64,000 nucleotides of DNA from NCBI GenBank assembly GCA_027494135.1, contig JAOSJK010000012.1, positions 982,795 to 1,046,794 on the forward strand, in the 5' to 3' direction. Made by a program: the position numbers and the translations under genes. Under the pieces are notes generated by a model. The model saw only the letters and a list, made by a program, of their open reading frames with translations. It was not told the DNA's origin and ran no database searches. Source of the stretch: Acidimicrobiia bacterium. GTDB taxonomy: Bacteria > Actinomycetota > Acidimicrobiia > IMCC26256 > PALSA-610. This document shows positions 50,097 through 64,000 of this stretch, in pieces (within the stretch, counting starts at the first letter, position 1; each line of letters opens with the position of its first letter).

Positions 50097-50813
50097 GTGG
50101 TCATCGGGCTGGTGTCGGCGAAGGGTGCCCCAGGGGTCACGGCGGCGGCGCTCGCGCTCACGGCGGCTGCGGGCGATGCCGGGTTGTTGGTGGAGCTGGA
50201 TCCATCCGGTGGCAGCATCGAGTGTTGGACGGGCCCGGCTGGTGAGCCTGGACTGATCCGGGTGGCGAGCGGCCTTCGCCGTTCGGTCGATCCCGAGGCC
50301 TTGCTGTCGCACGCGGTGGAGGCGTCTCGTGGGTTGCGGGCGGTGTTGGCACCGACCGCCGGCGGGTTGGCGGAGTCGACGATCGCGGCGGTCGCTGATC
50401 GGCTCGTGCCTGCTCTGGCTGGGTTGGACGGGACGGTGGTCGTCGACGCCGGACGGTGGTCACCGTCGCAGTCCACGGCGCGGCGCCTGGTGGGCTGCGA
50501 GGTGGTCGCGGTGGTGTGTGCACCAACGGTGGAGGGGGTCGAGGCGGCCCGGTGGTTGGTGGAGGCGCTCGAGACGGTGGACGCTCGGCGGGTCGTGGTG
50601 GTGCCGGTCGGTGACCGCCCCTATGGCCCGGGCGAGATCGAAGAGGCCATCGTGGTGCCAGTGCTGGGCCCGTTGGCGTGGGACCCGCGGGGCTTGCACT
50701 TGTTGGTGACGGCGGGGACGGGCCGCGGGTGGGTGCGCAGCGCGCTGGCCCGCTCGGCGCGCACGGTCGCCAACTGGCTCGTCGGCGCAGCGGAGGTGGT
50801 GGGCCGTGCTTGA
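50097..50813 (+). CDS. CpaE/MinD-like P-loop protein with degenerate Walker A
   Basis: MVIGLVSAKGAPGVTAAALALTAAAG deviant P-loop; position immediately before tadA. Confidence 0.65.
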   Translation: MVIGLVSAKGAPGVTAAALALTAAAGDAGLLVELDPSGGSIECWTGPAGEPGLIRVASGLRRSVDPEALLSHAVEASRGLRAVLAPTAGGLAESTIAAVADRLVPALAGLDGTVVVDAGRWSPSQSTARRLVGCEVVAVVCAPTVEGVEAARWLVEALETVDARRVVVVPVGDRPYGPGEIEEAIVVPVLGPLAWDPRGLHLLVTAGTGRGWVRSALARSARTVANWLVGAAEVVGRA

Positions 50814-52121
50814 CGAGCTCGAGGCTGGTCTGCGGCGGATCGTGGCCGACGAGATCGGCGACTACCTGGCGCGCGCGAACGTGGACGGACGCCGAACCCC
50901 GGACGAGATGGACCAGCGGCAGATGGCGCGGGCCATCCTGCGCCGCGAGCTGGATCACCGGGCCAAGGCGGCGCTTCGGGTGGGTGAGCCGCCGCTGTCG
51001 CCCGAGGAGGAGGACCTGGTCCTGGAGCGGGTATTGGCCACGGCGTTCTCGGCCGCGCCAGGGCTGGACCGGCTGCTGCAGCGCGACGACGTGACGGATG
51101 TGTTCGTCAACGGCTGCGACGACGTGCGACTAGTGACCATCGACGGGGAGACCGAGATCGTCGAGCCGATCGCACGGTCCGACGGGGAGCTGATCGAGAT
51201 GATCCAGACCCTGGCCCGGCGAGGCGGCCACATGGAACGCGAGTTCACCCCGTCGCGGCCGCTGCTCGACCTGCAGCTGCCCGACGGGTCGCGGCTGGCG
51301 GCGGCGGCGTGGGTGACTCGGCGGCCGTACCTGACGGTTCGGCGGCATCTGCTCGTCGACGCCGACCAGAAGGATCTCGTCGGGCGGGACATGTACGACC
51401 TCGGGTTGGCGTCGCTGTTGGCGGCGTTGGTCCGCGCCCGCCGCAACGTGTTGATCGCGGGCGGCCAGGGGGTTGGGAAGACCACGCTGTTGCGGGCGCT
51501 GCTGCACGAGTGCGAACCGGACGAGCGGATCGTGGTGTTGGAGCAGGAACCCGAGCTGCACCTCGACGCGACCCCGGGTCGGCACGACCACGTGCTGTTG
51601 TTCATGGAGCGGGGCGCCAACACCGAAGGGGTCGGGGCGGTGTCGCTGGCTGATCTCGGTCGGGCGATCAAGCGGTTCACGCCGCGGCGCATCGTGGTCG
51701 GCGAGGTCCGTGGCCCTGAGGTGATCGACATGCTCGAGGCCATGACTCAGGGCATCTCGGGGTCGATGTGCACGATCCATGCCGACTCGTCGTGGTCGGT
51801 GTTCCCCCGCCTTCCCGTCTACGCGCGGGCGGGGGGACGGGACTGGTCCACCGGCGATGTCCTGCAGCTCGCGGCGCTGGCCTTGGATGTGATCGTGTTC
51901 CTGGCCCGGGACCGGGCGGGCCGGCGGGTGATCTCCGAGGTCCGGTTCGTGCAGCGGTTCGATCCCGACTCGGGTCAGGTCGTGACCGACGAGTGGTTCT
52001 GCCCGGGCGAGGACGGTGCGCCGTGCGGAACCCGGCGGCACCGATCCCGGTGCGGGTTCTCGACGAGCTGGTCGAGCACGGCTACGACCCGGCCCTGCAC
52101 GACGATGGGGGCCTGCGGTGA
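50806..52121 (+). CDS. tadA: CpaF/TadA secretion ATPase (apparent frameshift near 52020)
   Basis: DVTDVFVNGCDDV, NVLIAGGQGVGKTTLLRALLHE, RIVVGEVRGPEVIDMLEAMTQGISGSMCTIHADS. Confidence 0.95.
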
Positions 52122-52961
52122 CGGTCCTGGCCGCGCTCGCCGGGGTGCTGTCGGTCGCCGGCGTTTGGGTGGTGGTCACGTCGTGGCGGCCGGTCCCGGC
52201 CCGTGAGCGTGACCGGTCCAGACGATCGGTGCTGGATCGTCTCGACCGGCGCCGCGTCCTGGGCGCGGCCGCCGGCGGGCTTGTCCTGTTGGTGCTGACC
52301 CGCTGGCCCGTCGCGGCGCTGGCTGGGGCCGCGCTGGGCTGGATGCTCGGTGGGATGGCGGGGAGGAAGGAGCGCCGCGAGCTCGACCGGCGCACGGAGG
52401 CGATCGCGTTGTGGACCGAGATGCTGCGCGACGCAATCGGCACGGCGCGCGGCGTCGAGGGCGTCCTGGTCGCCACCGCCGCGACCGCGCCGCTGCCCAT
52501 CCGGGCCGAGGTGCAGGCCATGGCCCGGCGCCTCGCCCGCGAACCGCTCGACGTCGCGCTCGACGGGCTCGCCGCCGATCTCGACCACCCGATCGGTGAC
52601 CTGGTGGTGACCGCCCTGCGGCTGACCTCGACCGCTGGCGGCCGCCAGGTCCGCGATGTACTCGCCAACCTCGCCGCCGCCGCCTACGCCGAGGCGGACA
52701 GCCGCCGGCGAGTGGAGGTGGCCCGAGAGCGGCCACGGGCGGCGATGCGGTACACGGCCATCATCATCGGTGGGTTCGTCGCGCTGCTGGTGGTGTTCTC
52801 CCGCACGTACCTGGACCCGTATGACTCGGCCCTCGGGCAGGTCGTGCTCGTCGTGGTTGGCTTCTACTGGGCCGCGGGGTTCTGGTGGATGCACCGCATG
52901 GGCCGCGTCCGCCGGTTGAACGGTTCCTGCTCTCCGCCCCCGCTCAGGACGGACTGCGTTG
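52118..52961 (+). CDS. tadB: TadB-like membrane protein (apparent frameshift near 52915)
   Basis: ALWTEMLRDAIGTARGVEGVLVATAATAP...DLVVTALRLTSTAGGRQVRDVLANLA; T2SSF-like. Confidence 0.82.
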
Positions 52962-53845
52962 AGCCCGCTCTCCGCGATCGTCGCGGCTGGGGCGCTCACC
53001 GGCACTGGGGTGTGGTTGGTGTGGACCGGCTGGTCTCCCGCTCGCCCCCGCTGCGGACCGCCCTGGCCCGCCTCGGCCAACCCCTCGTCGAGATCGAACC
53101 GGTGTCACGAGACAACCTCGATGTCCGCGTCGGGGTCTGGGCCCGGCGGATCGGCATCGTCGATCACGCCGTCGCGTCGCTGCGCGCCGACCTTCGGGTC
53201 CTGCGCCGCAGCCCGGACGAGCAAGCCGCCCTGATCGTCACCTACGCCGCCCTCGGCTTCCTGTGGGCCCCGGGTGGTGGCGGCCGGGGGCTGGCTGGTC
53301 GGGGTCCGGCTCCCCGTCGCCATCCCACTGTGGCTCGCAGCCGCCGGCGCCGGCATCGGCGTCGTCTCCAGCATCCGATCCGTGCGCACCGCCGCCGCAC
53401 AACGCCGGCAGGCGTTCTCGCATGCCTTGTCATCCTTCTGCGACATCTGCGGCATGTGCCTGGCGGCCGGCCGCGGCGTCGAGTCCTCCCTCGAGACGGC
53501 CGCCCACACCGGGGCGGGCTGGGCGTTTGGCGAGCTGCAGACCGCGTTGCGCACCGGGTATGTGCGGGGCGAGACCCCATGGGACGCGCTGGCCCGGCTG
53601 GGCAACGACGCCGAGCTACCGGACCTCACCGAGCTCGCCGCCGCCCTGTCCCTCGCGGGGGATCAGGGCGCCGCGGTGCGCGACACGGTCAGTTCGAAGG
53701 CCAAGGCCATCCGCGAACGGCTCACCGCCGACGCGGAGCGGTCCGCGCCAGCACCACCGAGCGCATGGGCATCCCCGCCACGTTCCTGCTGCTCGGCTTC
53801 ATCCTCTTCCTTGGCTTCCCCGCCCTCGCCGTCCTCTTCGAATAG
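52959..53845 (+). CDS. tadC: TadC-like membrane protein (several apparent frameshifts)
   Basis: SSFCDICGMCLAAGRGVESSLETAAHTG...ELAAALSLAGDQGAAVRDTVSSKAKAIRERL...RMGIPATFLLLGFILFLGFPALAVL. Confidence 0.82.
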
Positions 53846-53884
53846 GAGCCCTACCCCATCCACCGACTGGAAGGAAGACACGTC

Positions 53885-54082
53885 ATGGAAGTCCTGACCC
53901 GAGTCTCGACCTGGCTACGGCTGCGCCTGGCCGAGGCCCGCGCCCGCGCCGTCGCGGAGGCCGACCGCGGCGAGATCGTCGAGAAGGTGATCATCGTCGC
54001 CGCCGCGGCGGCCATCGCCATCGCCGCCATGGCCGCCATCGCGCTGGCCGTGGACATCAAGGTCGGAGGCATCGAGCTCTGA
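53885..54082 (+). CDS. Small Flp-pilin-like/TM protein
   Basis: EIVEKVIIVAAAAAIAIAAMAAIALAVDIKVGGIEL. Confidence 0.55.
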   Translation: MEVLTRVSTWLRLRLAEARARAVAEADRGEIVEKVIIVAAAAAIAIAAMAAIALAVDIKVGGIEL

Positions 54083-54522
54083 TCCTGGGCCGGGCCCGCC
54101 GCCGCCGGCCACCGCGCCAGGCGAGCCGACCCGCCCGGGCTTCGCCGCGCCCCAGGACATGGAGCGACCGAGGTTCGTCGACGGTCGAGTTCGTCATCGG
54201 CACGGCCCTGATGGTGATGCTGTTGCTGGTCGTCGTGCAGTTCGCCCTCTACTTCCACCTCCGCGCCGTCGCCCACACCGCCGCCCGTCACGGACTCGAC
54301 AACGTCCGCGTCCTCGACGGCTCCACCGAAGCCGGCGTCGCCGCCACCAACGACTTCCTCGACCAGAGCGGCACCAGCCTGGAAAGGCGCGACGTGCAAG
54401 CCACCCGCACCGCCACCCTGTCATCAGTGCAGGTGTCCGGGACGGTGGTCTCGGTCATCCCCGGCCTGCGCCTACCCGTCCAAGTCACCGTCGACGCGCC
54501 CACCGAACGGGTCACACCATGA
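54079..54522 (+). CDS. TadE-like pseudopilin (start uncertain)
   Basis: DRGSSTVEFVIGTALMVMLLLVVVQFALYFHLRAVAHTAARHG. Confidence 0.72.
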   Translation: MILGRARRRRPPRQASRPARASPRPRTWSDRGSSTVEFVIGTALMVMLLLVVVQFALYFHLRAVAHTAARHGLDNVRVLDGSTEAGVAATNDFLDQSGTSLERRDVQATRTATLSSVQVSGTVVSVIPGLRLPVQVTVDAPTERVTP

Positions 54523-54929
54523 CCCGGCGAGCAGCCGGCGAACGCGGATCGGTCAGCGTTGAGCTGGCCATCCTCGCCCCACTCGTCGGCATCCTGCTCG
54601 CCTGTGTCGTCCTCGTCGGCCGGGTGCAGATCGCCCGCGCCGACCTGGAAGGCGCGGCACGGTCAGCGGCGCGTGACTTGTCGATCGCCCGCGACCCCAC
54701 TGCCGCGCTCGCCACCGTCCGGGAGGCCCTCGACGTGACCCTCGAGGTCGGGTCGCCGTCGTGCCGGACGGTGGTGTTCACCCCGGTCATCTCCGCCACC
54801 GAGGTGTCGGTCACCCTCACCTGCACGGTTGACCTCCAAGCCGCTGCGGTGCTGCCCGTACCGGGCACGATGAACCTGTCGGCCACGGCGACCGAGATCG
54901 TCGACGAGTACCGCGAGCGCCAACCATGA
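54519..54929 (+). CDS. TadE-like pseudopilin
   Basis: ERGSVSVELAILAPLVGILLACVVLVGRVQIARADLEGAARSAARD. Confidence 0.85.
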   Translation: MTRRAAGERGSVSVELAILAPLVGILLACVVLVGRVQIARADLEGAARSAARDLSIARDPTAALATVREALDVTLEVGSPSCRTVVFTPVISATEVSVTLTCTVDLQAAAVLPVPGTMNLSATATEIVDEYRERQP

Positions 54930-55357
54930 CCGCCGCACGCCAGCGAGCGAGGGGCCGCGACCGTGGTGAGCGCGGGTCGGCGACGGTGTGGATGATCGGC
55001 GTCACGGTTTCGTCGTTCCTGATGGTCGCGCTGGTCCTCGACGGCGGGGCGATGCTGCGGTCCCGCAGCGACGCTTTCGCCATCGCCGGCTCCGCCGCCC
55101 GCGCCGGTGCCCAACAGCTCGACGAGGACGCAGCCGTCGAGGGACTGACCGTGCTCGACCCGATCGCCGCCGAACGAGCCGCCTTGGCCCACCTCGCCGC
55201 CGAAGGTGTCACCGGGACCGTCACCGTCACCGCCGACACCGTCACCGTCACGGTCACCTCGACGGCGCGGCTCCAGATGCTGCGCCTCGTCGGCGGCGAC
55301 ACCGTCACCTTCGACGCCACCGCCACCGTCCAGGCCATCAAGGTGGGCCAGCCATGA
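54926..55357 (+). CDS. TadG-like pilus assembly protein
   Basis: ERGSATVWMIGVTVSSFLMVALVLDGGAMLRSRSDAFAIAGSAARAGAQQLD. Confidence 0.82.
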   Translation: MTAARQRARGRDRGERGSATVWMIGVTVSSFLMVALVLDGGAMLRSRSDAFAIAGSAARAGAQQLDEDAAVEGLTVLDPIAAERAALAHLAAEGVTGTVTVTADTVTVTVTSTARLQMLRLVGGDTVTFDATATVQAIKVGQP

Positions 55358-58300
55358 CCCGCCTCCGCGGCACCGCCGCCCTCGCCGTCCTCGCCGCGCT
55401 CGTCGCCGGGGTGCCGTGGGCGCTGGTGCAGTTCGGGAACTGGCCCATCCACGGTGTGCCGACCGGTGAGCAGCTCCGCGATCTTGGCGACGCCGTCGTG
55501 TCCGACACCGCTGTGTTCGCGGTGCTCACCGTCGCCGCCTGGGCGGTGTGGTCGGTGTTCCTGGCGTCGCTGCTTGTCGAGGTCGTCGCCGTGGCCCGGG
55601 GCGTCCAGGCCCCCGGCTCACCTTCGCGGGTCCGGTGCAGCGATCGGCGCGCGGTCTCGTCGCCGCCATCGTCCTCGCCCTCACCATCGCCCACAACCCC
55701 CGACCGGCCACCGCCGGCCCCCTCATCCCGACCGCCACCGCACGAGCGGCACCCGTAGCGACGGCCACCCCTCCCGCAGTCGAGCCTTCCCCGCCGCGCC
55801 GCCGGCCGCGGCTCCAACCGGCGAGCCCCGACGGCCTCGCCAAGACCGTGACCGTGCAGCGGGGCGACAGCGCGTGGTCGATCGCCGAGACCCATCTCGG
55901 CGACGGCATGCGCTGGCGGGAGCTGTGGGACGCCAACCGCGCCATCACCCAACCCGACGGGCGGGCATGGACCGACCCCCAGATCATCCGGCCCGGCTGG
56001 CAGCTGCGACTCCCCGACCGCTCGACAGCCGAGAGCGCCACCACGACCGACCGACACACCGTGGCCGCGGGCGACACGCTGTCGGGGATCGCCCAGGCGC
56101 ATCTCGGTGACCCGGCCCGCTACGTCGAGATCTTCGAGCTCAACCGTGACGTCGCCCAGCCAGACGGCCAACGGCTCACCGACCCGGACCTGATCCAGCC
56201 GGGTTGGAGCCTGCGCCTCCCCCAAGGCGGCGAACCCCCGAGCCGCCGGAGGTCGTGCCGGACCCCCAACCCGACCCGGCCCCGGCCGCTCCCTCACCCG
56301 AGGCGTCAGCTCCGTCGCCCACCACGACACCGGCCCCGGCGCCAGCATCGACCGCCCCCACCCGACCCGAAGGCACCATGGACGCTCGGGGCACCGCTAG
56401 GGAGAACAGCAGCGCCGCAGGCGGAGACTCCTCGACACCCGCACTGGCTGGCATCGCGAGTGCCCTGGTACTGGCCACGGGGCTGGCGGCGCGCATCGCG
56501 TTCCTGCGCCGCCGTCGCGCCGTCCGAGGAACCCGCCACCACCCGCTGCGGGCCGGGGGCGAGCAGGTCATCGATGCCGTCGTCGCCGCCGCCGATGTGC
56601 CCCTCGTCCGCTGGGCCGGCCAACACCTCGCCCGTCTCATCGCCAACCTCGACCGCCGCCACGTCACGGGCGCGCCGGTCGCCGTCGAGTTGAGTGACAC
56701 CGCGGGCATCGAGCTGCTCTGGGACACACCGCAACCCGATGCCGTCGCGCCGTGGACCGCGGCCGACGGCGGGTGGGCGTGGCGACTCCCCTACGACCCT
56801 GACGCCCCCGTTCCTGCCAACGAGCTCCCCGCCGCCATCCCCGCGCTCATCACCATCGGCCAGCGCGACGGCCGCCAGCTCATGGTCGACCTCGAGGCCT
56901 ACGGGACCGTCACGGTGACCGGCGACCCCGAGCGCGTCGACGCGTTCCTGCGAGCAACCGCCGTGGAGCTGGCCACCAACCAGGACCTCGCTGACGCGTT
57001 CGTGTACGCCGTCGGCCTCGACCCCGGCATCACCCACCTCGATCGTCTGTGTGCCGCCGGCATAGTCGATGCCATCCACCGCCTCGACACGGTCCGCCAA
57101 TCGGTGGCCGCCGCGCTCACCGCCGATCGCGTCGACGGGACCTTCGCGGGCGCGCCGGATCCACGACACCGATCGACGCGACCATCGTCGTCGCCCACCC
57201 AGGATCGGACCAGGACCTCGCCAATCTCCGGAGCGCGGCGCCGCCTCGGCATGGCGTGGCCGTCCTCGCCTCGGCCGCCAACGTCGAGGCCGACGCACCC
57301 GCTCACATCGCCCTGCTGGGCGACGGCTCCGCTCGCCTCGACCCGCTCGGCATCGAGTTCACGCCGGTGGTGCTCCCCGAAGCGACGGCAGGCTTGCTCG
57401 AGGCCGCGCTCGGATCGCTCGAGGACCTCGAGGCAACCAGGGCCGACTTCACTGAAGCGCACCGGCCGGACGAACCGCGTGCCGACGCTGCAGCGGCAAG
57501 CGCCGATCTCACCGGGCCGAGCGGGAACGGCCACCACCCCCTTCGCGACGGGCTTCCGGCCCCGATACCACCGGGTCCAACGACCGGTATCGAGGAGCAG
57601 CTCCTCCTTACCCCCGCCGAAGACGACGGCCTCGCCTTGGACGAGCCCGCGATGGTCGTCGAGGTGCTCGGCACCCCCACGGTGCCGGACCGTCCCGGCC
57701 TTGGGCGGCGTGAGCTGATCCTCACCGTGCTGCTCGCCTGCCGGGCCGGACCGGTCGCAGCCAGCGCCGTGCAGGACGCCCTCTGGGGAGGCAAGCCGGT
57801 CGAGTCCAAGACCGTGTGGAACGTGATCGGCGCGACGCGACGCGCGCTCGGCGACCTCCCCGACGGCACCCCCGTCATGCCTCCCGCCGACCGTGCACGG
57901 GGAACGCTTCAGCTTGCGCCCGGGGTCGTCACCGACCTCGCTCAGCTGCGCGGCCTGGTCGAGCGCGCCGAGACAGCCTCGTCATCCGAGGCCATCGGGC
58001 TGCTGCGCGAGGCGCTCGAGTTCGTGACCGGACCCCCATTCGACGCGGCTGGCTACGACTGGGCCCACCGCGACCAGGACGTCGCCGAGGCCTCCACGCT
58101 CATCGAGCAGGCAGCCGTGTCTCTCGCCGACCTCGCGCTTGCCAGCGGCCAGGTCGACGTCGCACGCGACGGCCTCACCCGGGGCCTGCGCGGCCTTCCC
58201 GGAAACGAGGAGCTGTACCGCTCCCGCCTGCGGGTCGAGCACCGCGCCGGCAACCTCGCTGGCGTGCGGGCGGCTTACGACGAGCTCGTCACATACCTCG

Positions 58301-58374
58301 CCGATCTCGAGACCGAACCCTCGCCAGCCACGACCGCCCTGTACCACGACCTGATCCAACCAGCGCGCCGCTGA
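55354..58374 (+). CDS. Large TM protein with tandem LysM and C-terminal BTAD domain (apparent frameshifts near 55612, 56230, 57170)
   Basis: Two TM segments; KTVTVQRGDSAWSIAETHLGDG and RHTVAAGDTLSGIAQAHLGDPARYVEIFELN (LysM); C-term GRRELILTVLLACRAGPVAASAVQDALWGGKP...YRSRLRVEHRAGNLAGVRAAYDEL (SARP/BTAD). Confidence 0.82.
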
Positions 58375-58558: not shown

Positions 58559-60136
58559 TCACTGCTGCTCGAACACGGAGCGCGCGTCGAGGGACGACCA
58601 CTGCCGTGTCGGATCGGGACGCATCAGGCCATGGGCAAGCGGCTGCATCGTCGTGGTGTAGATCCGTGAGGATCCACTCGGATCACTCTCCAGCGTGGTG
58701 CCAACAAACTCGTCAGGACACGCGACGCCGGGCGCCAGTTCGAGCACCGCGATCGCGTCGCCCGCAAGATCGAGGAGGACACCGTCCTCGTACCAGGCGA
58801 CGATCTTGCCCGTGCGCGTTGCAGAGACCGATCCGTCGGTGTGAACCCAACCCATGTGCCAGTTCCCCCGGTCGTCGTAGACCGTGTCCCCGCCCACGCT
58901 GACGTGAAGACAGACACCGGCCTGATCGTGGAGAAGGCCGCGCCGGAAGGGCACCTCCGCCTGGCTACCACCGAGCGCCTGCTCGAGTCGGTCACCGAAC
59001 TGCAGTACAGCTCGGTGGCGCACGCTTGCTCGTCGGAGCTGCCATGGAACGATGTACGTTGTCGTCGCGATCGGGTCGAGCGCGAGGCCGGCGGGACCCG
59101 TTATGGCCCGCACGACAGTCGAGTGGGCTGGCGGACTGGGGATATCAGCGAACTGGCGACCCTCGACCCCGTGCAGCCGAGCCGTGATCTCCACGGGCCG
59201 CACCAGACCGACGCTCTCCCAGAGCCAACCGAGATAGAGCATCGCCGTGTTCAGCACGCGTGCGATGTTCACAGGTGAAAGGCCCTCTTCGAATCCGCGG
59301 ATGCGCGCCGCGACTGCCGCTGCACCGTCGCGAAAGACGCGTACCTCGTGACCCGGCTCGTCGGGCGCGGTGCCGAGATCGAGCGCGTGGAATCCGTCGA
59401 CCCAACGTTGCAGTGATGACAACGCCGGTGTCAGATCACCGAGGAACCAGTTGTTGATGTAGGTGGCCATCTCGGGCGGCGGCTGGAAGTCGCCGACAGT
59501 CGCGGTACGCATGTCGACGACGTCGCCGAGCGGCTCCTCTGGGAGTGCCGAGACAATCAGCCACATGTCGTCGGTCGGTGGCGTCAGCGGCAGACCGTGC
59601 GTGGCCCACACGTCGGGTCTCCGATCACGCGCTCGCAACGCGATCGCGTACGCATCGCGTACCTGCTGCTCGGTCATCGGCATGGTCCGCGTTCCGCTGC
59701 GCACGTGATGGCGGCGGTCGCCGTAGGCCTCGACCATGTACGGGCCCAGAGGTGACGGAAGAACGTCGACCACGAGGACGTGGCCGCCGGAGACATCCAC
59801 GGTCGTGAGCTGGCACAGGAGCGGAGGCTGAATCCCAACACGGGTGATGTCCTCGAGACGACCTATCGCTCCCCTTTCCGTGAGCGGCGTGATCGCCACC
59901 GGGACCGGCCAATCAGAGCCCGAGTCCTCCTCGATCCCGTAGATCACGGATCCACCGCCACCGTTGCCCATCCCGGACAGGTCCTTCAACACCTCCAAGC
60001 GCTCTGCCCGTGTGACGATGTGGAGCTCACGCTTGTACTCGATCGACGCCGACTCTGGGACGCCGGCCGAGACCAGCGATTGGAGCGCCTCGACTGTCTC
60101 GAAGCGAGAGCCCGCGCTGGCTCCGCTGAACGTCAT
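58559..60136 (-). CDS. AlbA_2/Schlafen-type N-terminal domain protein with long uncharacterised C-terminus
   Basis: ESASIEYKRELHIVTRAERLEVLKDLSGMGNGGGGSVIYGIEED...RRHHVRSGTRTMPMTEQQVRDAY. Confidence 0.82.
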   Translation of the reverse strand: MTFSGASAGSRFETVEALQSLVSAGVPESASIEYKRELHIVTRAERLEVLKDLSGMGNGGGGSVIYGIEEDSGSDWPVPVAITPLTERGAIGRLEDITRVGIQPPLLCQLTTVDVSGGHVLVVDVLPSPLGPYMVEAYGDRRHHVRSGTRTMPMTEQQVRDAYAIALRARDRRPDVWATHGLPLTPPTDDMWLIVSALPEEPLGDVVDMRTATVGDFQPPPEMATYINNWFLGDLTPALSSLQRWVDGFHALDLGTAPDEPGHEVRVFRDGAAAVAARIRGFEEGLSPVNIARVLNTAMLYLGWLWESVGLVRPVEITARLHGVEGRQFADIPSPPAHSTVVRAITGPAGLALDPIATTTYIVPWQLRRASVRHRAVLQFGDRLEQALGGSQAEVPFRRGLLHDQAGVCLHVSVGGDTVYDDRGNWHMGWVHTDGSVSATRTGKIVAWYEDGVLLDLAGDAIAVLELAPGVACPDEFVGTTLESDPSGSSRIYTTTMQPLAHGLMRPDPTRQWSSLDARSVFEQQ

Positions 60137-60819
60137 CAGCTCTCCAGCTCCCAGACGGCCACCTCGACTCCGACGGTGTCGTCGACACACACGCGCAGAT
60201 CCTGGATCCGATGGTCAGCCGGAGCGTGCGCCGCACCGCCAAGAAGCGGCCACAAGGCATCGATGGTTGGCTTCACTGGGCCCTCGAAGCCGAACACGAT
60301 TCCATCGGTTTCAGGTCCGAGCGTGATCGAACAGCCGCAGGGAGCGTCACCCCCGACAGGCTCGTGACCCTCGAGTTCGACAAGCCTCTCGACACTGCGG
60401 ACCGACCGGCGGGGAGCACTCGCGAGGTGAACCCTGACCGCTGGCGCGGGCGCCGGCGGGACAGCTGCTTCTCCGATCTCAACCCCGGGCACCGGACCCA
60501 CTTCCACCGTCGCCCAGACGGACCGAAGGAGGCTCCGATCCGCACCAACCACACCGAGAACCGGGTCAACGAGGTTGTCGAGGTCGAATCGATTCCCATA
60601 GCGCCGCCACGACGACACGACGAAGCGAAGACGGGGCGTCGTGAGCTCAACAAGGCCGCAGCCACTCACGGCATCCCGCCATTCGCGCTCACTCCGGGAA
60701 AGGAGAAGCGCGGGCTCACCCGACACGAACGCGCTCGCATCGCTGGGCTCGGCAGTCATCTCAGGGACCATCCGGTCGACGGGCCACCGACGTGGTGTCG
60801 CGGTCGCTCGGATCCGCAA
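60136..60819 (-). CDS. Hypothetical protein with faint RusA-like motif
   Basis: FVVSSWRRYGNRFDLDNLVDPVLGVVGAD resembles the RusA DLDNLxK motif; start overlaps next gene (shared ATG/stop region). Confidence 0.5.
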   Translation of the reverse strand: MRIRATATPRRWPVDRMVPEMTAEPSDASAFVSGEPALLLSRSEREWRDAVSGCGLVELTTPRLRFVVSSWRRYGNRFDLDNLVDPVLGVVGADRSLLRSVWATVEVGPVPGVEIGEAAVPPAPAPAVRVHLASAPRRSVRSVERLVELEGHEPVGGDAPCGCSITLGPETDGIVFGFEGPVKPTIDALWPLLGGAAHAPADHRIQDLRVCVDDTVGVEVAVWELES

Positions 60820-60842: not shown

Positions 60843-61616
60843 TCAGTCATTGGTCGGCACCGTCGCGAGCCGATGGCCGATCGCCCTCGGCACTAGGCGC
60901 CCGCAATGTGTCTCGTGCACCAGCGTCGCCATGTTCCTCCACAGCTGACGTCGAACCTCGTCTGCCGGCAACCCATGGTGGGCAGCTATCGTCGCTTCTA
61001 CGGCCTCGACGTTGCCCGGACGCTGTGGGCGCGATCTGCGGTCGCCGAATGGATGATCGGTCTCGGTCAACAGTCGTTGGAGAGGAACATGCGATAGGAG
61101 ATCGTTCTTGCTCACGCCCGCCTGGTTGACCGAGAAGTAGCACCCGAGAGCAACCGCGCGTGCGGTCTCGTGCTCGTCGCCCAGCCACCAGTGCAGCACT
61201 GCGCCCACAATCGGCCTCGCCTCCAGCTCATCGAGCAGCGCCGTGGTTGCTCCCGCGCTGTGCAGGCTGGTGATGCGCGGGAGTGACTGAAGCACCTCGA
61301 GCGCGCCGCGAAGGGTCGCGCGCTGGCGATCGGGATTCGCGCGAGCGCCATCGAGACCGACTTCACCGGCGAAGCACGTCGTCTCGAGCAACTCGCCGAA
61401 GCGGGTTGGGGAGAACTGCTTCTGCGACGAGGCCAACCCAGGATGGCAGCCGACGCCCCACACGGCTAGCTCGTCGTTTCGCTGCAGCGCCGTCGCAGCC
61501 TCATCGAGTGAGCGGGTCACAGCGAACACGACTGCGTTCAGGGCATCGATCTCCGCCGGTGGGATCGTTGCTTCCACGTGCGCGTGAAGATCGAGCGGAG
61601 GAAGCGGCAACGTCAC
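60843..61616 (-). CDS. qatD: TatD-like metal-dependent hydrolase, QatD-like
   Basis: LPPLDLHAHVEATIPPAEIDALNAVVFAVTRSLDEA...GEVGLDG...LHSAGATTALLDEL...RLLTETDHPFG; overlaps qatC stop. Confidence 0.85.
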   Translation of the reverse strand: MTLPLPPLDLHAHVEATIPPAEIDALNAVVFAVTRSLDEAATALQRNDELAVWGVGCHPGLASSQKQFSPTRFGELLETTCFAGEVGLDGARANPDRQRATLRGALEVLQSLPRITSLHSAGATTALLDELEARPIVGAVLHWWLGDEHETARAVALGCYFSVNQAGVSKNDLLSHVPLQRLLTETDHPFGDRRSRPQRPGNVEAVEATIAAHHGLPADEVRRQLWRNMATLVHETHCGRLVPRAIGHRLATVPTND

Positions 61617-62895
61617 ACGACCAACGCCAGTTCGCGCATTGTCCGTTGAATCAGGTCCAGTGCATCCCGGCCCCGATACGAGTCAGGCAGCGTCATCGAC
61701 GAAACGTCGCGGTCGTCCACGCCACGCTCGACGAACTCCTGGACGGCGCGCACCATCGACTTGTCGGCGAGGTAGTTGCGAAGGTCGTCGCGATTGAGCG
61801 AGTCGAGGTACGAGGTGCCATCCACAAGCCCACACGCAGCGAACGCCGAGCGGCGGACGAGGCAGCCGAAGCAGACCCCGCAGTGCTGTGTCACGGGAAG
61901 GCGGAAGCTTCGATGGCCGGTGTGTGCACACGAGTGACTGGCCGTGAGGAAGTCCGCCGCTGCCTGCTCGCCGACGAGCTCGGCCGCGAGTCGGAACATC
62001 TCCCCCTTCGTCATCCTCTCGAAGGGGTTCCGGATCACGGCATGCACGCCGATCTCGCCGAGAAGCTCGCTGAGCCCAGCCAGGAACGTGGGATGCGTTG
62101 TGGCGTCGAGACGCTCCCGCGCTGGTCGGCACCGAGCGGGGGGTTGAGAGAGGCGAAGCCGTTCTCCGGTATCCAGAGCTCCACACCGTCAACGGACGCG
62201 ACGGCGAGACCAAGAGACAGGAAGAGCAGCGATCGGCTGCGCGTCGTGAACTCGTTCGGGAACGGCCGTCCATCGACACGTCGACGTCCACGGCCGAGGC
62301 GGATCTGGTGATGGAGCTGATCCCCGCCGGGCAGCAGCCGGTCAACTGCCTTCGCCACCGCGCCCTGGATGGGTGACAGGTTCGTGGCACTGACATGTGA
62401 CACGAGTGCGTACGAGCCGCCGTCCAGCTCCTCGCGGCAGATCAGTGCACCGATCGCCGAGTCGGCGCCACCACTCAGGAGTACGACACGCTCGTTGTGC
62501 TGAGCAACGGGCGCGACACGTTCCTTCGGTGATCGGCTCTTCAGGAACCGCAGCGTCCAGTCGTCGCCGCTGAGGAACCCGAGAAGCGACGCGAGCCGAT
62601 CCCTGATCGAATCCCAGGGCGCCGCATCGACCACGGGAGTCGTGAGCTGGATCTCCCGACTTGACCAGTTCGAGCCTGCCAACCGGCGAGGCGTCGAGCG
62701 GTCCGCCGCGAGCACACCGGCAGCAAGTCGCACCAGCTCGATGTTCAGTCTGGGAACCGGGCCGAGGTCGCCGAGTGAGGGTCCCAGCCGAGTTACGAAG
62801 GTGTCACGGTCGTCCTTCGCCCATAGGAACGTCTCGGCCGCATCGGCCGCGGTCACTCGGGTACCCAGCGAGAGACGAAGGCGATACTGGGGCAC
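61613..62895 (-). CDS. qatC: QueC-like PP-loop protein, QatC-like (apparent single-base frameshift near 62098)
   Basis: ERVVLLSGGADSAIGALICREELDGG; WIPENGFASLNPPLGADQRGSVST/TTHPTFLAGLSELLGEIGVHAVIRNPFERMTKGEM; SHSCAHTGHRSFRLPVTQHCGVCFGCLVRR Cys cluster. Confidence 0.9.
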
Positions 62896-63731
62896 TACTC
62901 GCTCTTCCAGATCGCTCGTAGCGTCTCGATGCCCTGCTCGATTGCTCGCTCGAGTTCCGCCGGTGTCGGTCCGGTTACCGTGAGTTCCGCTCGATCGGCG
63001 AGCACGTGAGCCGTGTTGCGCATCTGTCGTTCCGTCTCGAGGGTGATCGCGACCGAGTGGTCGGAGTTCCTGAGCGTGGCGGCGGTCTCGGTCGTGGCCG
63101 CCTCGAAGATGATCGTTGCGATCGCCTCGCGAACGATCTCCGATGGGTCCGGCGGTGCGCCACCTTCGTTGGCCTCGAGGACCCACTGCGCGATCTCGGC
63201 CGCGGCGCGCCGCTCCTCGTCGTCCTCGATCGTCCCGTCGGGAAGCGGCCCGCACACCGCGCTGACGATCTGGCGCGTCACGTCGATCGGGTCGTCCACC
63301 GCCCGCAGCCGGTCGTAGTCGAGCCCGAGCTCGGCGAGGACCGTGGCGTTTCCTGTCCGGAGCGCGTACGCGGCCGCGGCGGCCCGGCCGGCTCGTGACG
63401 ACGAGCGGGCTGTGCTGCGCTGCGCGCCGCCACCCCGCCCACCTCCGCCTGCCCCCGGACCAGCCCGTCCTCCGCCTCCGCCTCCGCCCATACCGCCTGG
63501 GCCGTCTCCGCCGCCACTGGGGCGCGGTCGAAAGAGGCCGATCGTGGGGAGCAGGGACTCGGGCGGGAGCGGCGGGCGATCGGGTCGATTCTCGGGCGGA
63601 GGGCGATCGGGCGGTTCTCGGTCGTCCCCAGGCGGCGATGGCGGGGGACTGTCAAGCCAGTTCGTGATCTCATGCCGGAGGTCACCGCCCGCCGCGCCAC
63701 CTCCCCCGGTGTAGGAACCCTTCGTGCCCAC
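62895..63731 (-). CDS. qatB: QatB-like protein
   Basis: MGTKGSYTGGGGAAGGDLRHEITNWLD N-terminus, Gly/Pro-rich linker, helical C-terminus; overlaps qatC start (GTAG). Confidence 0.8.
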   Translation of the reverse strand: MGTKGSYTGGGGAAGGDLRHEITNWLDSPPPSPPGDDREPPDRPPPENRPDRPPLPPESLLPTIGLFRPRPSGGGDGPGGMGGGGGGGRAGPGAGGGGRGGGAQRSTARSSSRAGRAAAAAYALRTGNATVLAELGLDYDRLRAVDDPIDVTRQIVSAVCGPLPDGTIEDDEERRAAAEIAQWVLEANEGGAPPDPSEIVREAIATIIFEAATTETAATLRNSDHSVAITLETERQMRNTAHVLADRAELTVTGPTPAELERAIEQGIETLRAIWKSE

Positions 63732-63732
63732 C

Positions 63733-64000
63733 TCAGGAGCCTCCGCCGAGCGTCTTCAATGCGTTTCGGATTGGCGCTTTGGTGGCCTCGCCCGTCCACT
63801 TCTCGATCACGGCGTCGAAGCCGCTGGTGCCCGCGAACAGCAGGATCGTCGCCGGCTCCAGGTCGTCGGCCGGCGTCGTTCGGAGCAGCCGCACGGCGGT
63901 CTCCGTGGCGTTCGGGTGAAGTCGACACACTCGAAGCAACCCAGTGATCGCGGCCACCTGTTCGGACGGGCGGTCGCGTCCGAGCGCGCCAGATGTTGGG
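63733..64000 (-). CDS. C-terminal part of a CDS running off the window; QatA (KAP-type NTPase) expected by position
   Basis: Open to the window edge in frame ...EQVAAITGLLRVCRLHPNATETAVRLLRTTPADDLEPATILLFAGTSGFDAVIEKWTGEATKAPIRNALKTLGGGS; assignment by synteny only. Confidence 0.5.
   Translation of the reverse strand, partial: PTSGALGRDRPSEQVAAITGLLRVCRLHPNATETAVRLLRTTPADDLEPATILLFAGTSGFDAVIEKWTGEATKAPIRNALKTLGGGS

What the first reader, a model, noticed from the sequence alone, without database searches (positions are those of the whole stretch)
61613..64000. QatABCD-like antiphage system at the right edge
Sequence shows a tightly overlapping minus-strand array: a partial CDS, a QatB-like protein (MGTKGSYTGGGG... 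with Gly/Pro linker), a QueC-like PP-loop protein (SGGADS plus Cys cluster) and a TatD-like hydrolase. Established knowledge: this gene order matches the QatABCD defence system (QatA ATPase, QatB, QatC QueC-like, QatD TatD-like). The actinobacterial setting, beside a metal/pilus island, is worth recording. QatA identity is inferred from order.
Basis: partly seen in the sequence, partly recalled or inferred. Interest (0 to 1): 0.8.

Follow-up and report, generated by a model that had tools for sequence, protein, structure and literature searches.

The report
Actinobacterial QatABCD anti-phage operon
A four-gene bacterial anti-virus system of a known type (QatABCD) sits at the window's right edge as cargo of a conjugative element; the system is ordinary, but its hosts often lack the pathway that should make the chemical its key enzyme is thought to use.

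Summary
The gene cut off by the window edge is a KAP P-loop NTPase (QatA), followed by QatB, QatC and QatD, in the same order as ~20 orthologous actinobacterial operons. Corrections: qatD lies at 60843-61616, mostly outside the stated interval. qatC is not one open frame (one frame change near 62101), and qatA has three. Single-copy rpoB of the same genome is also split over frames, and substitutions between this operon and a second, 72%-identical copy fall mainly on third codon positions, so assembly indels are likelier than pseudogenes. QatB escapes PADLOC and NCBIfam models but has the essential MGT N-terminus, and its predicted fold has solved QatB as top match. The operon is cargo between a Tad/LysM-BTAD block and a T4SS/TrwC conjugation module. 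One side result has interest. The leading model says QatC conjugates 7-carboxy-7-deazaguanine (CDG) to QatB, yet this genome and 21 of 36 other QatC-carrying actinobacterial genomes lack any QueD-family (PTPS) protein, and Qat carriage is independent of QueD. That suggests a QatC substrate other than host-made CDG, which is testable. Member of a known kind; modest interest.

The parts
60843..61616 (-). qatD: TatD-family metal-dependent hydrolase, 257 aa, intact
   Evidence: PADLOC QatD 6e-37; Pfam TatD_DNase 3.6e-29; NCBIfam QatD 3.5e-39 but below its cut-off; metal ligands DLHAHVE, GEVGLDG, LHS, LHW and TETDHP align with solved TatD 9xsn
61613..62895 (-). qatC: QueC-like PP-loop protein; one frame change at about 62101-62104 splits it into an N part (62101-62895) and a C part (61613-62104)
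   Evidence: PADLOC QatC 1.4e-36 and 4.4e-16; both parts match solved QatC; SGGADS, RSRSLLF, ENG, TTHP, NPFERMTK, C-x15-CGVCFGC-LVRR in alignment A2
62895..63731 (-). qatB: putative QatC substrate, 278 aa, MGT N-terminus, ~100-aa Gly/Pro-rich disordered tail, helical domain
   Evidence: ORF; M1 G2 T3 invariant in 18 orthologs; AF2 model helical domain pLDDT mostly above 90; top PDB fold match 9y02_A QatB, prob 0.98, E 0.05
63733..64000 (-). 3' end of qatA, which continues past the window edge to about window-equivalent 65545-65683 (L004 7545-7683; 5' end uncertain); KAP NTPase in four frame segments
58559..60190 (-). neighbouring cargo gene: AlbA_2 (Schlafen) + 4-fold beta-flower protein, 543 aa; not a recurrent Qat partner
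   Evidence: Pfam; no homolog in the related qat loci
50803..58374 (+). left flank of the slot: Tad pilus genes (T2SSE, T2SSF, TadE x2, TadG-like) and LysM/BTAD gene (the latter split over frames)
   Evidence: same BTAD-cargo-SCO6880-VirB4-Toprim order on an Iamia plasmid

Best explanation
This is a QatABCD anti-phage operon carried as cargo in a variable slot of a large actinobacterial conjugative element. By analogy with the characterised systems, QatC binds QatB, takes QatB's flexible N-terminus (Met removed, Gly2 exposed) into its ATP-pyrophosphatase active site and modifies Gly2, which arms QatB to restrict phage. QatA (DNA-binding KAP ATPase) and QatD (TatD-type nuclease) widen or regulate the response. 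Shown here: gene identities, order, residues, orthologs, element context. Inferred: activity in this organism, the reaction and the effector step. The frame changes in qatA and qatC are most likely assembly indels. Side claim, less certain (about 0.5): the group QatC transfers is not host-made CDG, because many carriers cannot make CDG by the known route.
For: Profile matches for A, C, D; solved QatC matches; QatB MGT and fold; same A-B-C-D order in about 20 related loci and on actinobacterial plasmids. Conjugation context: VirB4-like ATPase and Toprim, T4CP, TrwC relaxase, ArdC, Iamia plasmid backbone. Artefact reading of frames: rpoB and gyrA split; third-position bias between the two genomic copies, about 0.44-0.55 versus 0.08-0.13 at second positions. 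CDG point. Published model: PMC13279940, PMC13329287.
Against: QatB has no hit in PADLOC or NCBIfam, and A, C, D are below NCBIfam's equivalog cut-offs (partly because qatA and qatC are in pieces). qatA and qatC are not intact as assembled. The QatB fold match is E 0.05, TM 0.40. No activity data for any actinobacterial Qat.
Confidence: 0.94

Rival explanations
1. The operon is a decaying, non-functional Qat remnant: the frame changes in qatA and qatC are real mutations.
For: Four frame changes in about 4.7 kb; the second copy on contig C45 is even more broken, with in-frame stops.
Against: rpoB and gyrA, essential genes, show the same splitting in this 80-contig, 77.5%-complete assembly, as does the neighbouring LysM/BTAD gene; substitutions between the two copies keep the strong third-position bias in all four genes; the two QatC pieces join without loss against intact orthologs.
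Confidence: 0.12
2. The QueC-like gene is a housekeeping preQ0/queuosine QueC and the array is a chance neighbourhood.
For: SGGxDS and Zn-Cys cluster are shared; the C part passes Pfam QueC barely (22.9 vs cut-off 22).
Against: Matches QatC, not QueC, by a wide margin; no PTPS/QueD and no canonical QueC in the genome; orthologous A-B-C-D operons recur.
Confidence: 0.01
3. QatC in these hosts does use CDG, supplied from outside: imported from neighbours, made by an unrecognised enzyme, or provided by infecting phages that carry 7-deazaguanine genes.
For: Type IV CBASS Cap9 conjugates CDG to an N-terminal glycine and QatB has a similar MG(T/G)S start (PMC13279940); phage-encoded 7-deazaguanine pathways are established knowledge.
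Against: QatC lacks the Tyr/Asp that bind CDG (T278/T280 instead; CDG not seen in the crystal structure, PMC13279940); 22 of 37 carriers lack PTPS and carriage is independent of it; a CDG importer is not known to me.
Confidence: 0.4

Closest known systems
QatABCD of P. aeruginosa and E. coli (Gao et al. 2020; structures in PMC13279940, PDB 9y02, 9zee, 9vlk)
   Same: Four genes in the same order; KAP NTPase, MGT-initiated disordered-tail helical QatB, QatC with SGGxDS, the Thr-x-Thr region (STRTTHP in orthologs and in the C45 copy) and Zn cysteines, TatD-type QatD.
   Different: QatB too divergent for current QatB models, with a longer Gly/Pro-rich tail and MGTK instead of MGTS; scores under NCBIfam cut-offs; Zn motif spacing C-x15-C versus C-x19-C; host lacks QueD.
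Actinobacterial qat operons on plasmids of Rhodococcus, Arthrobacter and in Streptomyces, Micromonospora, Microthrixaceae
   Same: QatD up to 57% identical; QatB 66% identical to Micromonospora globbae, both MGTKGSYTGGGG; same order and tight gene packing.
   Different: Intact frames; different mobile-element neighbours; on the plasmids examined annotated only as P-loop NTPase, hypothetical, hypothetical, TatD hydrolase.
Type IV CBASS Cap9 (QueC-like) with CD-NTase
   Same: QueC-fold enzyme acting on a partner's N-terminal glycine motif (proposed for Qat, shown for CBASS).
   Different: Partner gene is QatB, not a CD-NTase; QatC has QatC-type, not Cap9-type, substrate residues.

Membership tests
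QatABCD | QatA: KAP-family P-loop NTPase encoded first | tested here: met
   PF07693 5.9e-11 and 1.8e-23, PADLOC QatA in three frame segments
QatABCD | QatB recognised by existing sequence models (a detection criterion, not a biological one) | tested here: not met
   No PADLOC or NCBIfam hit for this QatB; only 2 of 18 actinobacterial orthologs hit PADLOC QatB, weakly. This is a limit of the models: fold and N-terminus are met
QatABCD | QatB MGT(S) N-terminus, disordered tail, helical core | tested here: met
   MGTK; M-G-T invariant in 18; model; top PDB match QatB 9y02_A prob 0.98, E 0.05
QatABCD | QatC: QueC fold with SGGxDS, N- and C-extensions, four Zn cysteines, Thr pair instead of CDG-binding Tyr/Asp | tested here: met
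   ST-x-T-THP motif in nearly all orthologs. In the assembled C12 copy the frame change falls within this motif
QatABCD | QatD: TatD-family nuclease with metal ligands | tested here: met
QatABCD | Order A-B-C-D, tightly packed, one strand | tested here: met
   1-nt gap, 1-nt and 4-nt overlaps
QatABCD | All four reading frames intact | tested here: inconclusive
   qatB and qatD intact; qatA and qatC change frame in an assembly where rpoB and gyrA do too
QatABCD | Protects against phage | not testable with these tools
   Needs expression and phage challenge
Housekeeping QueC (queuosine/preQ0) | Over TIGR00364 cut-off, with queD/queE in the genome | tested here: not met
   16 bits versus cut-off 150.3; no PTPS, no canonical QueC
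Type IV CBASS | CD-NTase partner gene and Cap9/Cap10 | not tested
   No CD-NTase search was run; the adjacent genes were identified as QatA, QatB and QatD

The most novel reading that the evidence does not exclude
QatC performs an N-terminal glycine modification with a donor other than host-made CDG: Qat operons persist, with catalytic residues conserved, in actinobacteria that lack QueD, so the deazaguanylation model carried over from type IV CBASS does not hold for them as stated.
Probability: 0.5. Interest if true: 0.6.

Novelty: new member of a known kind. Interest (0 to 1): 0.36.

Why it matters
As a locus it is one more Qat system, useful mainly in showing that actinobacterial Qat is under-called: of 399 actinobacterial genomes only 2 pass NCBIfam's QatC cut-off while 14 score 80 bits or more, and QatB is missed by all models tried. 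The side result bears on the stated open question of what reaction QatC catalyses (PMC13279940). Qat carriers without QueD are natural tests of the CDG model, and near-identical Qat operons in Streptomyces hosts with and without a PTPS protein (L030 versus L029) are a ready-made comparison. The one paper in the held library that names both QatC and QueD (PMC13329287) does not raise this in the passages read.

Tried and rejected
(1) AlbA_2/beta-flower protein next to qatD as a fifth Qat component: no homolog in any related qat locus. (2) QatB sequence profile against the PDB: only low-complexity matches; replaced by a predicted model and fold comparison. (3) Programmed frameshifting in qatC or qatA: no long homopolymer or obvious slippery run at the sites, orthologs have intact frames, and rpoB is split too. 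(4) A codon-usage frame model of 78 kb shows many same-strand frame changes but mixes real gene boundaries with indels, so no rate is taken from it. (5) G097 locus (L014), found by the QatC model: a QueC-like protein beside an MGTS protein, but no QatA or QatD seen; a different system, not counted as QatABCD, though it is among the 14 QatC carriers of the even sample. (6) The Bacillus-type QueE model is weak for actinobacteria (37-114 bits even inside queD-queE-queC clusters), so the CDG argument rests on QueD/PTPS absence. (7) tRNA scan for an integration site in the window: none found.

Full report
The observation. The window is C12:982795-1046794 of an 80-contig, 77.5%-complete assembly. 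Minus-strand ORFs at its right edge are as described: a CDS entering from beyond 64000 and ending at 63733, a 278-aa ORF starting MGTKGSYTGGGG (62895-63731), a QueC-like reading (SGGADS, then CGVCFGC) and a TatD-like ORF (60843-61616). The DNA past the edge was fetched as L004 (L004 position = window position minus 58000).

Identity of the genes. QatD: PADLOC 6e-37, Pfam TatD_DNase 3.6e-29, metal ligands conserved against a solved TatD. QatC: two pieces in different frames, each a QatC (1.4e-36, 4.4e-16), each matching solved QatC chains; a profile of orthologs gives 8e-67. QatA: three frame segments match PADLOC QatA over profile positions 4-142, 180-306 and 363-549, two of them the KAP NTPase domain. 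A fourth segment, 63733-63999, is in the position of the C-terminus but has no significant family match. QatB has no model hit, but it lies between A and C with overlapping or adjoining start and stop codons, starts with the MGT motif that is invariant in 18 orthologs, and its predicted structure (disordered tail, helical domain) has as its only confident PDB match QatB of the QatBC complex, 9y02_A, probability 0.98, E 0.05. In the characterised system G2 of this motif is essential (PMC13279940).

Orthologs. A scan of one genome per species with our QatD gave 28 loci. About 20 hold a QatABCD operon in the same order; the others are truncated by contig ends or hold only a TatD relative. Plasmids of Rhodococcus and Arthrobacter carry it too, named only P-loop NTPase, hypothetical, hypothetical, TatD hydrolase. 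In an even sample of 399 actinobacterial genomes, 14 have a QatC match of 80 bits or more and only 2 pass NCBIfam's cut-off.

Frame changes. qatA needs three and qatC one. The single-copy rpoB of the same genome is split over frames and gyrA likewise, so indel errors are genome-wide. A second Qat locus on contig C45 (7596-12741), 72% identical in DNA, is more broken still. Differences between the two copies fall on third codon positions (qatD 0.55, qatB 0.51, qatC N part 0.53, qatA segment 0.44) and rarely on second (0.13, 0.09, 0.11, 0.08) (the qatC C part shows the same pattern shifted by the phase chosen). Both copies therefore descend from lineages under protein-level selection. I infer assembly errors, not decay, but only reads can prove it.

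Context. Left of the cargo are Tad pilus genes and a LysM/BTAD gene. Right of qatA are an M23/transglycosylase-like protein, a VirB4-like ATPase, a Toprim protein, a type ISP restriction enzyme with an Mrr-type nuclease domain, a T4SS coupling protein, a TrwC relaxase with a TraI-like helicase, and an ArdC-type anti-restriction protein. An Iamia plasmid has the same BTAD - variable cargo - SCO6880 - VirB4 - Toprim - T4CP order, with metal and redox genes in the slot. Qat is thus cargo of a conjugative element, here inside a 1.19-Mb contig.

How it works. QatB and QatC form the core; QatC's PP-loop and QatB's N-terminal glycine are both essential; QatA binds DNA; QatA and QatD alter phage range (PMC13279940). 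The reaction is unresolved. By analogy with Cap9 it should join CDG to Gly2, yet QatC replaces the CDG-binding Tyr/Asp by Thr, and CDG was not seen in a structure determined in its presence.

The CDG point. CDG needs QueD (PTPS family) and QueE. This genome has no PTPS and no canonical QueC. Of 23 genomes fetched for their Qat operon, 14 lack PTPS, including eight isolates (for example Mycobacterium palustre, Kitasatospora indigofera, Cryobacterium sp. Y29). In the even sample, 8 of 14 QatC carriers lack it versus 229 of 385 non-carriers (Fisher p = 1). Combined, without double counting and with this genome, 22 of 37 lack it. Only 4 of 37 have canonical QueC, each with queD and a QueE-like gene beside it, which shows the searches work. 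PTPS absence is scattered over the QatD tree (8 changes, 6 forced, shuffles 7.5), and near-identical QatD occur in Streptomyces with and without PTPS. Limits: PTPS absence in drafts is not proof; some PTPS proteins are not QueD; three of the 37 MAG rows are near-copies; some QatC carriers of the even sample were seen only as QatC plus an MGT protein or as fragments, not as full operons; external or phage-supplied CDG is not excluded; two further QatBC papers cited by PMC13279940 are not held and could not be read.

Verdict. A genuine QatABCD, new member of a known kind, with a side observation that makes the open question of QatC's substrate directly testable.

Noticed in passing
L012 7596-12741 (contig C45 of the same genome): Second, 72%-identical QatABCD locus with many frame changes and in-frame stops; either a second element, a strain variant or a decaying copy.
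   Followed up: partly
window 58559-60190: 543-aa protein with an AlbA_2 (Schlafen) domain and a C-terminal 4-fold beta-flower domain; only the AlbA_2 part has relatives on plasmids. Possible separate defence gene.
   Followed up: partly
L004 16120-19449 and L076 321-956: Type ISP restriction-modification enzyme (Type_ISP_C, ISP_coupler, Mrr_cat_2), split over frames, beside the conjugation genes: a second defence system on the element.
   Followed up: no
L014 5639-9303 (genome G097): Operon with a 359-aa protein, a 228-aa MGTS-initiated protein, a QueC/QatC-like protein (STHTASP in place of STRTTHP) and a 201-aa protein, with no QatA or QatD seen: a possible QatBC-like variant system.
   Followed up: no
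L055, L056, L057, L060 (genomes G420, G191, G492, G509): QatC-model matches preceded by MGT-initiated proteins (MGTCGAYGG, MGTSSRWPGP, MGTSTRWKGP) but lacking the ST-x-T-xxP pattern as searched; may be a further QatBC branch with an altered substrate site.
   Followed up: no
window 50803-55351: Tad-type pilus genes (T2SSE, T2SSF, two TadE, TadG-like) as part of a conjugative-element-like block.
   Followed up: partly
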